From Vicingaceae bacterium (lineage in GTDB: Bacteria > Bacteroidota > Bacteroidia > Flavobacteriales_E > Vicingaceae), in the NCBI GenBank assembly GCA_028245195.1, contig JAOKCF010000003.1:182830-246829 (forward strand): a stretch of DNA of 64,000 bases, in the 5' to 3' direction. The notes under the pieces were generated by a model that did not search any database, was not told the origin of the DNA, and saw only the letters and a program-made list of their open reading frames with translations. The position numbers were made by a program, and so were the translations under genes. This document shows, in pieces, positions 25,828 to 30,921 of the stretch. How positions within the stretch are numbered: the first letter of the stretch is position 1; each line of letters opens with the position of its first letter.

Positions 25828-28827
25828 TTAGTAGAACATTTCTGCTACTTTTTTCTTTGTTCCTGTGATAATTTCCCCATTGAAATTTACAGAAGAGCCT
25901 TTTTCAATGAGCAGCTGTGTTTCGCAGTTGGTGATGCTAAGACGTTCTGTAATTAATTTAGCTGTCCCATATTCAGCTTTCTTTTGTAAGGATACTAAGC
26001 CGTATGTTGAATTAGAAATAGAGACATTCGTTAAATACACTTCAGATAAATCTTTAGAAGCTGCCCCAATATTACATTGATCAATGGTTGTATTACTCAC
26101 CCAAAGGGTTGAACCTTCTCCACCACTAATACCTTTGTCGCTGATATCTTTAATGGTACAACTGTCAATTTTAATCTGGCTGGTACTAAAATCAATCGCA
26201 TCATTTCCAACAAAATTAAACACAGTGTTTGAAAGTCTGCCAGTGCAATAATCCGAGTCGAAAGCATCGGCAAAAATGTCTTTGAATTGGCAGTTGTTCA
26301 CGTAAAAATCAGACTTTATAATGTTTAAGGCATCTTCACATAAATTATTTTCAAACGAGGAGTGCTCTATCGTTACATCCGCTTCATAAAAGTTTACTGC
26401 TCCTGAAAGGGACCACCCTTCGTATGAAAAGGTGTTTAAGTTTTTAAATTGGACGTAATGAACTTCACTTTTACCCTTTGCTTGCAGCACCACAATTCCA
26501 TTCGATGACCTGTCAGAAGAATTAATAACTATTGGACTTGCTACTGAACCCATAAAAAAGACAGGACTTTCACAAACAATTGCTGCTTCATTTATTAAAT
26601 TTAATTGAACTCCTGCTTCAATGACTACTGTTTTGCCATCACCAATAAGAATTTTATCGGCCAACTGATAGCTACCTTTTTTCAAAATTAACGTGTCATT
26701 CTTGGCTATAAAAAGTTGCAACGGATTGGATGTTGGACTGCTCTTTAATTTTTGATACGGCGAAAGAGCGATGTTCTTTTTCCAAGGAGTAAGTTCTGCT
26801 GTGTAGAATTTATTGGAATCTACATCTTTGAACTCTAGGTGCGTTGCTTCGCTGTAATAAGGGATATTGTATTCTCGAAATTGACCTTCTTCTCCGAATT
26901 TGGAAACAACACTTTTATCTTCAAATTCATATAGTGTTTTAGAATTGTTTGTCAAACGTGTTGGAATAATTCCCGCTACGTTGTTATTTTCTATGTTAAG
27001 TATGCTTTGATTTCCTTCCGCGTGATAATATGCATTTAGGTAATAGGGGAAGAGAGAAGGGAAATAGTCAAAGGAAAAATTTGGTATATGGTCAATAATT
27101 ACTAAGCTATCGTAAAACCCGCTATTGTTGCGCTCTTTGATAACTACTAAGTCATTTCTAAACAACCTTGCATTCTCTAAAAGAAAACTCCTCTCAATGC
27201 TGTAATGAGGAAACTCTATATTTATTAGCTTCTGGTATGCTTTTAACTGAGGTTCTATTTTGTTATAGAAGGAGTTGACGAATGTGTCGCTTGAATAATG
27301 CTCTACCGCTTTAATATATGCTTCTCTTAATTTTTTAGAAGTAAAAAAATAGGTGTAGAAATGCTTGTATTTAAATTTTTCGGTTTCTTGAAAAAAGTTA
27401 AGCGCCATGTTAGCCTCTCTTCCTCTAGATTGGAATTCGGGTGTAAAATTGTCGTAATTGATAATTTCTAACTTACAGCTAATCGGGTTGTAATAAAAGC
27501 GAAGGTTATGCCAAGTTGCTCCATGTTTTCCTTGATGCAGATCTGAAAGTGCTAGAAACTTAGCAAGTTTATCAATTTCGAAAAGGTCGTCAATCGGCGC
27601 AAGTCTATTTTTAAATTGATATAATAAACTGTGCCCTATTAGAAATTTTTGCCGAAAAGATTCATCTTCTGTTATTTGAGAAGATCCAAATGCCAAAATT
27701 CTACTGGTTTCATAATTTGGAAAGGCTTTCCAACCTGGAAGTGCATCCAAACCTTTGTGAAGGGCATTTCCTTTCCACATTGGATTTTCATCGAACTTTA
27801 AAATTGGCCCTTCTCGCCTTAAGTTAAATTCAAGTAGCTGTTTGGTAAAATGCTCTTCTATTGCATAAACGCCTCTGCTTGTTTGATTAAAATACAACGG
27901 AGCAAAATCGTAGCGAGTAGTTAACAGACCTGTCTCCAAAAACAATTGATGTGCTAAATATTCGTGTAAAAAATACCTACTTTCTGGAGATTGAACTGAA
28001 AACTCCTTCATTCTATGGAAGGTATTTCCTTTTCTTGTTTTAATTCTAAGAGACCATTTATTGCCAATTAAATGATCAAGCCAATCACCTTTAAACCTTG
28101 CTTTTATTGGAATTGGACCTTCATTAAATGATAAGATTCCTTTATTCCAACTACCATCGCTAAAATGGACTCCTTCAGCATAAGCATCTTCTTTTACTTT
28201 CTCAAATTTGGAAACTTTTTTGTCTGTAAAATAAAGGTTTATAGCGTCTTCTCTTAGGTGTTGAAAATATTCCTTCTTTTCAAATTTTTCAATTCTTAAA
28301 TCGTCAATATATGCTTCATCACCTTTTACCAGCCAACCAAACACTTTTATACTCTCAATGAAAGGAGGAACTTCAAATTCCAGTTCTAATTTTTCCCAAC
28401 CGTTTTTGGATAAGGTAGGAGATGGAGATGCATGTTTTTCTATTTTATGAAAAATACCTGCTTTATTTCCCTGAACGACCAGCACAGCATTCTTGGTGGG
28501 GTCTTTTCTCCACAAACTTACCTTGTAATATTCATTTACTTTAACGCCCTCTAAGTGAGCAGTCAAACCATAAGGCAAGCGTTTTGTTAGCATAATACCA
28601 CTTGTCCCGCTGTGGGATTCTTTCGTGGATACTGTTCCTCCAAGAATAACTTTTATACTTTCAACATCTCCTAAGGAATGGTAATGGTCTTTATCTGTTG
28701 AGTCTGCAGTTTTACATTCTACAATACAAGTTAGGTTAGCTCCATCAGTATTGCCGAAGTTGCCTTGATCACATGCCCCTAAAAAGAGGATTATAAGCGA
28801 TAAATATGTTAACTTCTTGATATTCAT
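25828..28827 (-). CDS. CotH kinase-like lipoprotein with C-terminal beta-helix
   Basis: The 999-residue protein has a lipoprotein signal (lipobox LGAC, Cys19), so it is anchored in the envelope. Residues of about 40-190 form a beta-sandwich, carbohydrate-binding-like domain (LTKRLPYGLTAHLEG, YIDDLRIEKF). Residues of about 190-560 match the CotH kinase fold: FKGDWLDHLIGNKWSLRIKT, TSRGVYAIEEHFTKQLLEF and the HNLRFYYNP...INYDNF metal-binding region. From about 720 onward is a right-handed beta-helix with repeated SN.T..C..G-like turns. CotH proteins are atypical kinases that phosphorylate proteins or glutamylate substrates; the target here is unknown. It is encoded 6 bp after the VTC-domain gene and probably acts with it. 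Confidence 0.85.
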   Translation of the reverse strand: MNIKKLTYLSLIILFLGACDQGNFGNTDGANLTCIVECKTADSTDKDHYHSLGDVESIKVILGGTVSTKESHSGTSGIMLTKRLPYGLTAHLEGVKVNEYYKVSLWRKDPTKNAVLVVQGNKAGIFHKIEKHASPSPTLSKNGWEKLELEFEVPPFIESIKVFGWLVKGDEAYIDDLRIEKFEKKEYFQHLREDAINLYFTDKKVSKFEKVKEDAYAEGVHFSDGSWNKGILSFNEGPIPIKARFKGDWLDHLIGNKWSLRIKTRKGNTFHRMKEFSVQSPESRYFLHEYLAHQLFLETGLLTTRYDFAPLYFNQTSRGVYAIEEHFTKQLLEFNLRREGPILKFDENPMWKGNALHKGLDALPGWKAFPNYETSRILAFGSSQITEDESFRQKFLIGHSLLYQFKNRLAPIDDLFEIDKLAKFLALSDLHQGKHGATWHNLRFYYNPISCKLEIINYDNFTPEFQSRGREANMALNFFQETEKFKYKHFYTYFFTSKKLREAYIKAVEHYSSDTFVNSFYNKIEPQLKAYQKLINIEFPHYSIERSFLLENARLFRNDLVVIKERNNSGFYDSLVIIDHIPNFSFDYFPSLFPYYLNAYYHAEGNQSILNIENNNVAGIIPTRLTNNSKTLYEFEDKSVVSKFGEEGQFREYNIPYYSEATHLEFKDVDSNKFYTAELTPWKKNIALSPYQKLKSSPTSNPLQLFIAKNDTLILKKGSYQLADKILIGDGKTVVIEAGVQLNLINEAAIVCESPVFFMGSVASPIVINSSDRSSNGIVVLQAKGKSEVHYVQFKNLNTFSYEGWSLSGAVNFYEADVTIEHSSFENNLCEDALNIIKSDFYVNNCQFKDIFADAFDSDYCTGRLSNTVFNFVGNDAIDFSTSQIKIDSCTIKDISDKGISGGEGSTLWVSNTTIDQCNIGAASKDLSEVYLTNVSISNSTYGLVSLQKKAEYGTAKLITERLSITNCETQLLIEKGSSVNFNGEIITGTKKKVAEMFY

Positions 28828-28833
28828 AAAAAC

Positions 28834-29547
28834 CTATACAGCTAAATGTGGATTGAAAATTTCGACACCTCGGATGTATTTTGAGAATTTTCCTAGTCGT
28901 ATGGGCAAGGCATTTGTAATTTTTTTTACTTCTTTGTCATTTTTCAGATCGTATTTTAGCTCCAGAATGATTGTTTTCTCTGGTAGAGATTTTTCTCTGA
29001 AAGAACTAATCATTGATTTAACATTAAAGAACTTCAAGTTGTAATCTACGGTGAAGCGGAAAACCTTATCGAAAGATTGGAAGTATTCTCGTTCATAAGA
29101 ATTTAATAAAGTTGGAATGTTTCTGGTTAATTCCGTCCGTACCATTTCTGGTAAATCAGACGCATTAAAAATTTGACTCCAATCTTGGCGGGAAAACCCT
29201 TCCTTTAAGTTGAAAGATTTTAATGGATAAGATTTCTTTTTACCAGCGGCACCATGTTTGATTTTTATCTCAAGGATTGGATCATTTATACTGCCAAATG
29301 TTTCTCCGTACCATCGAACTCTTATTTTAGTTCTGTCACTTTTACCAAAGTGATTTTCGTAATAACTGGTTAAGTTGGGAGTGTCAAAATAGATATTGTT
29401 GACTCTTCGTTTTTGATAAATGGGTGAGAAGATGCCTACACTTGTTTTAAGTAGCATTCTGGCATAGGACAAACTACTGTTTTCTAAAACAAACTTTCGC
29501 TCAAATCGAGCATTCTCCAATAAAGTATAATTGGCAGGAGTAGACAT
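28834..29547 (-). CDS. VTC-domain polyphosphate polymerase-like protein
   Basis: The 237-residue protein has the triphosphate tunnel fold of the VTC catalytic domain: ERKFVLEN at the N-terminus, YFDTPNLTSYYEN, the basic strand RTKIRVRWYG, LEIKIK, KKSYPLK, then ILELKYD and KFSKYIRGVE. These positions supply the Lys/Arg cluster and Glu that bind ATP and metal in yeast Vtc4, which makes polyphosphate. No membrane span is present, so it is probably cytosolic and relies on the DUF4956 protein encoded 2 bp upstream for membrane attachment. Polyphosphate synthesis is inferred from the family, not shown. Confidence 0.88.
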   Translation of the reverse strand: MSTPANYTLLENARFERKFVLENSSLSYARMLLKTSVGIFSPIYQKRRVNNIYFDTPNLTSYYENHFGKSDRTKIRVRWYGETFGSINDPILEIKIKHGAAGKKKSYPLKSFNLKEGFSRQDWSQIFNASDLPEMVRTELTRNIPTLLNSYEREYFQSFDKVFRFTVDYNLKFFNVKSMISSFREKSLPEKTIILELKYDLKNDKEVKKITNALPIRLGKFSKYIRGVEIFNPHLAV

Positions 29548-29549
29548 GT

Positions 29550-30230
29550 TTAGTAGGCCTTACTATCTAAGAAGGAAATGTTTGTATTGGGATAAGCTGT
29601 CAGTAATTCATTTCTGAAGAGTTCTAAGTTATTACTCTTTTGAACATTGGCTACATAAGAAATTTCTGAAGCTCCGTCTACCTGATCAAAACGCTTAAGT
29701 AGTGGTTGGCTAAAATGTTTATTCATTAACTCACGCACTACATTTAACTCAACCTTGTCTTGATTGGAGTTGATACTTACAAAGATGTTTTGGTTTTCGC
29801 TTTTTCCTTGAATAAAGAACCTTGCCCAAAGAATTACCATGAAAATAGCAAAAGCAGTCAATACAATCGGTAACTGATTTGCTCCTAACCCCAAACCTAT
29901 AGAGATAGAAAAGAAGATAAAAGCTAACTCTTCTGGCTCTTTAATCGCCGCTCTAAAACGAACGATAGATAAAGCCCCAACCAATCCTAAAGATAAGGCT
30001 AACGAAGATTTTACGATCGTGATAATTAGCATGGTGGTGAATGCTAAAATCATAAAATTAGCAGAGAAGTCTTTCCTGTTAGAAAGACTCTTAGCAACTT
30101 TTTGGTAGGTAATACCCAATAACCAGCAAAGAACAATAATCGTTACTGAGCTAATTAAAAAATCAACTAAAGAGATATTACTTTTCTCGGTTATGAGAAA
30201 CTTTTCAAAGAGATTCCACTTATTTTCCAT
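29550..30230 (-). CDS. DUF4956 membrane protein
   Basis: The 226-residue protein has four hydrophobic segments in its first 135 residues (FLISSVTIIVLCWLLGI; FMILAFTTMLIITIVK; SLALSLGLVGALSIVRFR; IVLTAFAIFMVILWARFF) followed by a soluble C-terminal domain. The core LSLGLVGALSIVRFRAAIKEPEEL is the typical DUF4956 signature. Function is not established; the family commonly sits beside VTC-domain genes. It is first in the DUF4956-VTC-CotH unit, with a consensus promoter just upstream at 30249-30256. Confidence 0.88.
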   Translation of the reverse strand: MENKWNLFEKFLITEKSNISLVDFLISSVTIIVLCWLLGITYQKVAKSLSNRKDFSANFMILAFTTMLIITIVKSSLALSLGLVGALSIVRFRAAIKEPEELAFIFFSISIGLGLGANQLPIVLTAFAIFMVILWARFFIQGKSENQNIFVSINSNQDKVELNVVRELMNKHFSQPLLKRFDQVDGASEISYVANVQKSNNLELFRNELLTAYPNTNISFLDSKAY

Positions 30231-30248
30231 GATAAAAAATTAGGTAGA

Positions 30249-30256
30249 CAAAAATA
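30249..30256 (-). promoter_or_regulatory. Promoter of the DUF4956-VTC-CotH unit
   Basis: On the minus strand TATTTTTG is an exact -7 match with a TTG 23 bp upstream. It ends about 19 nt before the DUF4956 start, so the unit can be transcribed separately from the pyrophosphatase gene before it. Confidence 0.65.
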
Positions 30257-30315
30257 CTCTTATTAAGTTAAAGTTAATACAATATTACAGGCAAACTTCG
30301 AAGGCAGTCGTTCGC

Positions 30316-30921
30316 TTAGTCTACATATGCTGCTTTGGCCGTGGAATAAATGTCTTGAGCTAATTTTTGGTCTTGATAACCCTCACTAATCATTGCATTA
30401 TTTCCTTTGTAGTTTGTAAACCAAGTCTCAATAATTTCAGAAATACCTGGATATTTTTTTTGTAATTCCAATATGGATTTAATGTGTTGCAGGCTGCTAT
30501 TTCTCAATATTGCAATTAATTTGTCGTCTTGTTCTCCTCGATCTTTCAATTTTAAAACGCCAATAACTTTACAATCAATAATACTTCCTCTTGCAGCAGG
30601 CGGGCCAATTGCAATAATGTCTAATGGGTCTCCATCTCCACCTTCGCTTTTTGGCAAAATTGTATTGGGTATCATACCATAGTTAGCTGGGTAGCCAAGG
30701 TAATCAATCAAACGCGGTTTACCGTCAACTGAATCCATTTGGAGTATTCCTGAGCTTTTATTGAGCTCATACTTTTCGATAGTCCCCGCCGGAATTTCGA
30801 CTAGCATTTTTACCCACAGTTCTTGAGTGCTTGTTTTTCGACCGGTCTCTACCTGCTCTTTTTCGGCGCAACCCAATAAATGAAGTGAGAGAAACACAGT
30901 TAAAATTAATTTCCAATTCAT
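30316..30921 (-). CDS. Family I inorganic pyrophosphatase with lipoprotein signal
   Basis: The 201-residue protein has a lipobox (LLGC, Cys18) followed by a complete soluble pyrophosphatase: EIPAGTIEKYELNK, GYPANYGMIPNT, the metal-binding GGDGDPLDIIAI and LKLKDRGEQDDKLIAI, which keeps the Asp and Lys of the active site. Cytosolic family I enzymes carry no such signal, so this one is predicted to be lipid-anchored outside the inner membrane, hydrolysing PPi there. It lies 85 bp upstream of the DUF4956-VTC-CotH unit on the same strand. A one-mismatch promoter box (CACTTTTG) precedes it. Another cytosolic Ppa or membrane pyrophosphatase would be expected elsewhere. Confidence 0.92.
   Translation of the reverse strand: MNWKLILTVFLSLHLLGCAEKEQVETGRKTSTQELWVKMLVEIPAGTIEKYELNKSSGILQMDSVDGKPRLIDYLGYPANYGMIPNTILPKSEGGDGDPLDIIAIGPPAARGSIIDCKVIGVLKLKDRGEQDDKLIAILRNSSLQHIKSILELQKKYPGISEIIETWFTNYKGNNAMISEGYQDQKLAQDIYSTAKAAYVD

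What the first reader, a model, noticed from the sequence alone, without database searches (positions are those of the whole stretch)
25828..30921. Lipoprotein pyrophosphatase + DUF4956 + VTC polymerase-like + CotH kinase-like block: candidate envelope polyphosphate/phosphoryl-transfer system
Seen: four adjacent minus-strand genes, three of them (DUF4956, VTC, CotH) 2 and 6 bp apart behind one consensus promoter, and a complete family I pyrophosphatase with a lipobox 85 bp upstream. Known: VTC domains make polyphosphate from ATP in yeast; CotH proteins are atypical kinase-fold enzymes. Inference: a membrane complex in which DUF4956 anchors the VTC-like enzyme, CotH modifies a surface substrate and carries a beta-helix, and PPi is removed outside the inner membrane. 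A lipid-anchored family I pyrophosphatase is itself unusual.
Basis: partly seen in the sequence, partly recalled or inferred. Interest (0 to 1): 0.72.

Follow-up and report, generated by a model that had tools for sequence, protein, structure and literature searches.

The report
Envelope phosphate-polymer module with lipoprotein pyrophosphatase
Four neighbouring genes in an uncultured Flavobacteriales-type genome encode an inner-membrane protein, a polyphosphate-polymerase-like enzyme and two outward-facing lipoproteins (a kinase-like protein and a pyrophosphatase); the same set recurs in many related bacteria, often beside surface-sugar genes, and looks like a machine that makes, exports and uses phosphate polymer at the cell surface, which nobody seems to have tested yet.

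Summary
The four genes are real, intact and under purifying selection (dN/dS 0.015-0.17). DUF4956, VTC and CotH are 2 and 6 bp apart. The pyrophosphatase lies 85 bp upstream; it and CotH carry lipoboxes. All ten Vtc4 tunnel positions examined are kept, invariant in 18 homologues, and the predicted fold matches yeast VTC subunits ahead of tunnel hydrolases. In 56 distinct loci with enough flank, DUF4956 accompanies VTC in 56, CotH-like genes in 53, a secreted metallophosphoesterase in 33 and the lipoprotein pyrophosphatase in 12, in at least four gene orders. 37 loci hold surface-polysaccharide genes; the window's own locus does not. The trio is a known accessory of Gram-positive Pel loci, but no sampled Bacteroidia genome (0 of 395) has PelG above cut-off, so it is not confined to Pel. 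Corrections: the promoter claim is no better than chance; lipid-anchored family I pyrophosphatases are common in this family, also without the trio; CotH's catalytic Asp is ambiguous. Most likely DUF4956 plus VTC make and export polyphosphate, CotH acts on an envelope substrate, and phosphohydrolases finish the products. Chemistry untested. New variant of a known kind.

The parts
30316..30921 (-). Family I inorganic pyrophosphatase, predicted lipoprotein (201 aa)
   Evidence: Pfam PF00719 119.1 bits; phmmer to solved PPases; lipobox HLLGC
30868..30921 (-). Signal peptide up to lipobox cysteine (Cys18) of the pyrophosphatase
   Evidence: sequence MNWKLILTVFLSLHLLGC; lipobox-like Cys also in the trio-linked relatives, with weaker motifs in L087 and L091
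30231..30315 (-). 85-bp gap between pyrophosphatase and DUF4956
   Evidence: no sigma-70-type promoter-like site on the minus strand here
29550..30230 (-). DUF4956 inner-membrane protein: five predicted membrane helices plus C-terminal ferredoxin/ACT-like domain
   Evidence: Pfam PF16316 55.3 bits; AF2 model, mean pLDDT 72.9, pTM 0.52; best weak PDB matches to the C-terminal domain are ACT/ferredoxin-like folds
28834..29547 (-). VTC-domain polyphosphate-polymerase-like tunnel enzyme, no signal peptide, no SPX or membrane domain (237 aa)
   Evidence: Pfam PF09359 104.6 bits; Vtc4 tunnel residues kept; AF2 pLDDT 84 and Foldseek best matches Vtc4/Vtc3/Vtc2
25828..28827 (-). CotH kinase-like lipoprotein with C-terminal beta-helix (999 aa)
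   Evidence: Pfam PF08757 38.2 bits; Beta_helix 25.2 bits, below cut-off; relative L039 has a CBM_4_9 match in its N-terminal part
28771..28827 (-). Signal peptide up to lipobox cysteine (Cys19) of CotH
   Evidence: sequence ...LIILFLGAC
27220..28098 (-). CotH kinase-like domain (residues 244-536)
   Evidence: Pfam; weak profile match to B. cereus CotH 5jd9, E 0.018
25852..26238 (-). Right-handed beta-helix region (residues 864-992)
   Evidence: Pfam PF13229 E 1.4e-5

Best explanation
The block is a cell-envelope phosphate-polymer module. Cytosolic VTC, docked on the five-helix membrane protein DUF4956, polymerises phosphate from ATP and passes the chain across the inner membrane, as Vtc4 with the Vtc1/3/4 membrane helices is thought to do for the yeast vacuole. 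On the far side, lipoprotein CotH, a kinase-like protein with beta-helix and (in a relative) carbohydrate-binding parts, acts on a surface substrate, most likely a polysaccharide or a matrix protein. Lipoprotein pyrophosphatase removes the pyrophosphate left by polymer use or breakdown; in relatives a secreted metallophosphoesterase joins it. Shown: gene identities, export signals in the sequence, conserved tunnel residues, recurring gene linkage. Inferred: polyphosphate synthesis, export through DUF4956, CotH activity and substrate, and the source of the pyrophosphate.
For: VTC: Vtc4 K200, R264, R266, K281, K294, R361, R373, E426, K455, K458 correspond to window K18, R76, R78, K95, K104, R153, R164, E196, K220, K223, invariant in 18 homologues (Vtc4 numbering read off the alignment). 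Two of three comparable hydrolase acidic-patch positions (PMC4641920) are basic here (R14, K198; the third is E16). The 13 best Foldseek hits are VTC subunits, ahead of hydrolases and cyclases. DUF4956 lies within 8 kb of VTC in 56 of 56 distinct loci, usually within 35 bp; CotH-like in 53 of 56; secreted metallophosphoesterase in 33; lipoprotein pyrophosphatase in 12 (duplicates removed by hand). Pyrophosphatase linkage persists across gene orders: PPase-DUF-VTC-CotH (window genus, G420), PPase-MPE-MPE-DUF-VTC-CotH (G227), DUF-VTC-CotH with MPE and PPase on the other strand (L108), PPase-MPE-CotH-VTC-DUF-CotH in Flavobacteriaceae (L147, L150, L162, L166, L169, L178), and a variant (L168). 37 of 56 loci have at least one polysaccharide-type gene. 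In S. intermedius, deleting the DUF4956 or CotH gene changed Pel level and aggregation (PMC12345266).
Against: No bacterial VTC-DUF4956 pair turned up as biochemically tested in the papers searched. The VTC gene deletion in S. intermedius gave no reported defect (PMC12345266). The window's own locus has no polysaccharide genes beside it, and its metallophosphoesterase, at another locus, is broken. Most trio loci (44 of 56) lack a linked pyrophosphatase, and such lipoproteins also occur without the trio. CotH's catalytic Asp is ambiguous. There is no extracytoplasmic ATP for a conventional kinase. The DUF4956 model is of moderate confidence and its membrane part matches nothing solved.
Confidence: 0.45

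Rival explanations
1. The trio is a regulatory or assembly accessory of surface-polysaccharide production: DUF4956 with its ACT-like domain and VTC sense or bind (poly)phosphate or nucleotide in the cytosol and gate an exported CotH scaffold; no polymer is exported.
For: Trio sits beside Pel genes in Gram-positives and beside glycosyltransferase, Wzy, flippase or sulfotransferase genes in many Bacteroidota. DUF4956 C-terminal domain looks ACT-like. Deleting DUF4956 or CotH changed Pel amount without abolishing it.
Against: The full set of tunnel residues is invariant, more than a binding role would need; recurring exported phosphohydrolases point to phosphate chemistry outside the membrane. 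The window's own locus has no polysaccharide genes nearby.
Confidence: 0.25
2. Extracellular phosphate scavenging: the lipoprotein pyrophosphatase (and metallophosphoesterase) harvest pyrophosphate and phosphate from outside and sit near the trio by neighbourhood conservation, not function.
For: Lipoprotein pyrophosphatases occur without the trio in 8 of 46 genomes of this family. They form a clade that mixes linked and unlinked members. Flanking genes are also conserved in the window's genus.
Against: In 8 of 8 family genomes with window-type DUF4956 the pyrophosphatase is close by, broken in one and cut by contig ends in two. In G227 the flanks differ but pyrophosphatase and trio stay together. 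Flavobacteriaceae show the linkage in another gene order with a distinct pyrophosphatase clade.
Confidence: 0.2
3. VTC here is a tunnel hydrolase (tripolyphosphatase or nucleotidase) acting in the cytosol, not a polymerase.
For: The tunnel fold is shared with hydrolases and cyclases; one acidic-patch position is Glu (E16).
Against: Two comparable acidic-patch positions are basic as in Vtc4 (R14, K198); profile and fold matches favour VTC subunits.
Confidence: 0.1

Closest known systems
Yeast VTC complex (Vtc1/Vtc3/Vtc4), polyphosphate polymerase-translocase
   Same: VTC tunnel fold, all ten tunnel residues compared, partner membrane helices, proposed synthesis on the cytosolic face with the product on the other side
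   Different: No SPX domain; membrane part is a separate protein (DUF4956) with no recognised kinship to Vtc1; bacterial envelope instead of vacuole; coupled to an exported CotH and pyrophosphatase; activity untested
CotH / polyphosphate-polymerase / DUF4956 accessory set of Gram-positive Pel loci (S. intermedius SIR_1592-1594; PMC7112168, PMC12345266)
   Same: Same three families next to each other; CotH exported; DUF4956 membrane protein with cytosolic ACT-like domain
   Different: No PelG above cut-off in any of 395 Bacteroidia genomes; here with lipoprotein pyrophosphatase; the 2025 authors reported not finding the synteny outside Pel loci
C. perfringens NELoc-2 VTC / membrane protein / CotH / chitin-synthase-like cluster (PMC2879425)
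   Same: VTC, membrane-protein and CotH genes together with a glycosyltransferase
   Different: Gram-positive, two VTC-membrane pairs, no pyrophosphatase in the part of the table that I read
B. subtilis / B. cereus CotH spore-coat kinase
   Same: CotH family fold by Pfam
   Different: Window CotH is a predicted exported lipoprotein with beta-helix; very weak similarity (E 0.018), catalytic Asp not clearly placed
Acidocalcisomal family I pyrophosphatase (trypanosomatids)
   Same: Family I pyrophosphatase in a compartment that receives VTC-made polyphosphate (role from general knowledge; sequence hit)
   Different: Bacterial lipoprotein; association here is by gene linkage only

Membership tests
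VTC-type polyphosphate polymerase (TTM fold) | VTC domain above curated cut-off | tested here: met
   104.6 bits, cut-off 23
VTC-type polyphosphate polymerase (TTM fold) | Basic tunnel residues and metal-binding Glu of Vtc4 | tested here: met
   ten of ten positions kept, invariant in 18 sequences
VTC-type polyphosphate polymerase (TTM fold) | Lack of the hydrolase acidic patch | tested here: inconclusive
   R14 and K198 basic as in Vtc4, E16 acidic; the fourth position not placed
VTC-type polyphosphate polymerase (TTM fold) | Makes polyphosphate from ATP | not testable with these tools
   needs an assay
Eukaryotic VTC complex subunit | SPX domain and C-terminal membrane domain in the same chain | tested here: not met
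   237-aa protein, VTC domain 14-231 only; may work like it, is not a member
CotH kinase family | CotH domain above curated cut-off | tested here: met
   38.2 bits, cut-off 23.8
CotH kinase family | Catalytic Asp (D228 in B. subtilis), Asn and metal Asp | tested here: inconclusive
   D458 and an Asn align; the D228 equivalent is D429 (with an insertion) or His435
Family I inorganic pyrophosphatase | Pyrophosphatase domain with DGDPxD, DxxxxDxK and YK motifs | tested here: met
   119.1 bits; DGDPLD, KDRGEQDDK, NYKG in sequence
   lipobox only
DUF4956 | Pfam domain above cut-off | tested here: met
   55.3 bits, cut-off 30.6
Pel accessory set | Contiguous with pel genes | tested here: not met
   PelG not found in this genome (84% complete), and in none of 395 Bacteroidia genomes above cut-off

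The most novel reading that the evidence does not exclude
A bacterial extracytoplasmic phosphorylation system powered by exported polyphosphate: VTC-DUF4956 threads polyphosphate through the inner membrane, and the secreted CotH uses it (not ATP) as phosphate donor to phosphorylate surface polysaccharide or protein, with lipoprotein pyrophosphatase and metallophosphoesterase clearing the end products. It would explain how exported bacterial kinases work where there is no ATP.
Probability: 0.17. Interest if true: 0.9.

Novelty: new variant of a known kind. Interest (0 to 1): 0.6.

Why it matters
Bacterial polyphosphate is thought to be made by cytosolic PPK enzymes, and exported bacterial kinases lack an obvious phosphate donor. 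A widely conserved VTC-DUF4956-CotH unit with outward-facing phosphohydrolases, often placed in surface-polysaccharide loci, offers a testable route for making phosphate polymer at the inner membrane and using it outside. It also widens a gene set reported so far for Gram-positive Pel biofilm loci to a phylum in which PelG was not found in the genomes sampled.

Tried and rejected
Promoter claim: no better than shuffles. Pel link in this phylum: PelG not found above cut-off. VTC as replacement for PPK1: PPK1 is broken in this genome but present with a long open frame in four of the five other genus genomes, so not general. DUF4956 as a solved channel or MgtC-like fold: no significant structural match; only the ACT/ferredoxin-like domain is recognisable, weakly. 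Metallophosphoesterase as part of the window block: absent here; a broken copy lies on another contig. Phage origin: no PHROG match for VTC or DUF4956. One search used a query that I had partly mistyped (not a real sequence); ignored and redone. Literature searches for lipoprotein family I pyrophosphatases and for an exported CotH acting on polysaccharide gave nothing direct beyond the Pel papers. The first labelling of metallophosphoesterases used a profile that included a T9SS tail and over-called them; redone with the trimmed domain.
Full report
OBSERVATION. DUF4956, VTC and CotH are separated by 2 and 6 bp; the pyrophosphatase ends 85 bp before DUF4956. Both the pyrophosphatase (HLLGC) and CotH (FLGAC) begin with a lipoprotein signal; VTC has none. 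Comparison with the nearest sister genome gives dN/dS of 0.015 (DUF4956), 0.042 (VTC), 0.072 (CotH) and 0.166 (pyrophosphatase), so the genes are maintained. The promoter claim fails: 18 sigma-70-like sites found, 18.1 expected, none on the minus strand in the 85-bp gap.

VTC. A profile of 18 homologues finds yeast Vtc4 in the PDB at E 9e-9. Reading the alignment with native Vtc4 numbering, K200, R264, R266, K281, K294, R361, R373, E426, K455 and K458 fall on window K18, R76, R78, K95, K104, R153, R164, E196, K220 and K223, all invariant. Which Vtc4 residues line the tunnel is from my own knowledge of the Vtc4 structure, apart from catalytic K458 and the site-1 metal Glu, which PMC4641920 discusses. 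That paper explains that tunnel hydrolases replace basic Vtc4 residues by a glutamate patch; two of the three positions I could place are basic here (R14, K198), one is Glu (E16). The AF2 model (pLDDT 84, pTM 0.82) has VTC subunits as its 13 best PDB matches, ahead of ygiF and other tunnel enzymes. This supports polymerase-like architecture, not activity.

DUF4956. The model (pLDDT 73, pTM 0.52) has five membrane helices and a C-terminal beta-alpha-beta-beta-alpha-beta domain. The only structural resemblance is of that domain to ACT/ferredoxin-like folds, and no match reaches E 0.001. By charge distribution the C-terminal domain should face the cytosol with VTC (inference). The segment SSLALSLGLVGALSIVRFRAAIKEPEEL is almost invariant.

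CotH. The window protein passes the Pfam cut-off but matches solved B. cereus CotH only at E 0.018. The catalytic Asp (D228 of B. subtilis, PMC7821199) appears to align with invariant His435 unless an insertion brings D429 into place; D458 matches the second Asp. The placing of D228 in the B. cereus sequence is my reading, not stated by a tool. A relative has a carbohydrate-binding domain match in its N-terminal part.

NEIGHBOURHOODS. Window-type VTC loci were collected from Bacteroidia genomes and from a scan of one genome for each of 85,462 species. Among 60 loci with at least 5 kb on each side (56 after removing four contigs fetched twice: L037, L039, L045, L046), DUF4956 is within 8 kb in 56, CotH-like genes in 53, a secreted metallophosphoesterase in 33, lipoprotein pyrophosphatase in 12 and at least one polysaccharide-type gene in 37. 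The loci were found by similarity to the window VTC and are not phylogenetically independent. The polysaccharide labels come from profiles seeded on genes in these same loci, so they are approximate. Flavobacteriaceae loci (Hanstruepera, Psychroserpens, Aquimarina, Xanthomarina) read PPase-MPE-CotH-VTC-DUF4956-CotH; several sit among sulfate-activation-like, sulfotransferase, flippase and nucleotide-sugar genes (the sulfate-activation, flippase and nucleotide-sugar names are my reading of the sequences). The first of the two CotH-like genes there is recognised only by profiles built here, not by Pfam. Another Bacteroidia group reads DUF4956-VTC-CotH-Wzy-CotH-phosphoesterase among glycosyltransferases. 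More distant short-type VTC genes also pair with DUF4956, and in two loci checked a CotH with a secretion tail lies close by.

PYROPHOSPHATASE LINKAGE. In the window's family, 8 of 46 genomes have window-type DUF4956 and in all 8 the pyrophosphatase is close by; it is interrupted in one (G415), and contig ends cut through the loci of G418 and G419. Six of the eight are one genus with conserved flanks, so they count as little more than one case, but G227 keeps pyrophosphatase and trio together with different flanks. Eight other genomes of the family have a lipoprotein pyrophosphatase with no trio near it. A tree shows a Flavobacteriaceae trio-linked clade and a second clade mixing linked and unlinked members. 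In the class-wide sample only the window genome and G227 combine a strong pyrophosphatase match with the trio. The association is therefore recurrent but not obligatory.

KNOWN WORK. Whitfield 2020 (PMC7112168) described CotH, polyphosphate polymerase, DUF4956 and DUF4832 genes beside Gram-positive pel operons. The 2025 S. intermedius study (PMC12345266) deleted them: DUF4956 and CotH mutants had altered Pel and weaker aggregation, the VTC mutant no reported defect, and the authors said the arrangement was not found outside Pel loci. Here it is widespread in Bacteroidota, where PelG is absent above cut-off from 395 genomes.

MECHANISM. The economical reading is polymer synthesis by VTC on the cytosolic face, export with DUF4956, and outside use or trimming by CotH, phosphoesterase and pyrophosphatase. 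Identities, signals, residues and linkage are shown; every chemical step is inferred. Whether CotH uses polyphosphate as donor is the most novel open reading.

Noticed in passing
own genome G000:C23 about 49.6-51.5 kb (L190:2097-3964), outside the window: PPK1 is split over several frames next to an intact exopolyphosphatase-like gene; in four of the five other genus genomes PPK1 has a long open frame, and in the fifth it was not found. Could be decay or assembly error.
   Followed up: partly
G000:C7:15973-18465 (L051:7974-10466): Second, shorter VTC gene paired with another DUF4956, a DUF2490 protein and a small lipoprotein, with a T9SS-signal protein downstream.
   Followed up: partly
G000:C2:7926-8814 (L191:1427-2315): Lipoprotein metallophosphoesterase (SFFAAGHTYG family) broken by frame changes in this genome, while homologues sit beside the trio in other genera.
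   Followed up: partly
L086:1-4097 (G417 contig C5): A short 192-aa CotH-related lipoprotein next to the full CotH and the start of a second DUF4956 copy at the contig end; tandem duplication or assembly artefact.
   Followed up: no
L106:6286-6684 (G415 contig C226): The trio-linked pyrophosphatase is interrupted by an in-frame TAA in this relative while the trio is intact.
   Followed up: no
L109, L132, L161, L167, L177, L179: Window-type VTC in contigs labelled Verrucomicrobia, Krumholzibacteriia, Parcubacteria, Desulfobacteraceae, Spongiibacteraceae and Gammaproteobacteria: transfer or mis-labelled bins.
   Followed up: no
L093-L100: Lipoprotein family I pyrophosphatases without the trio are common in this Flavobacteriales-type family, in several of them next to a DUF983-like gene and a predicted hydrolase (by eye).
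   Followed up: partly
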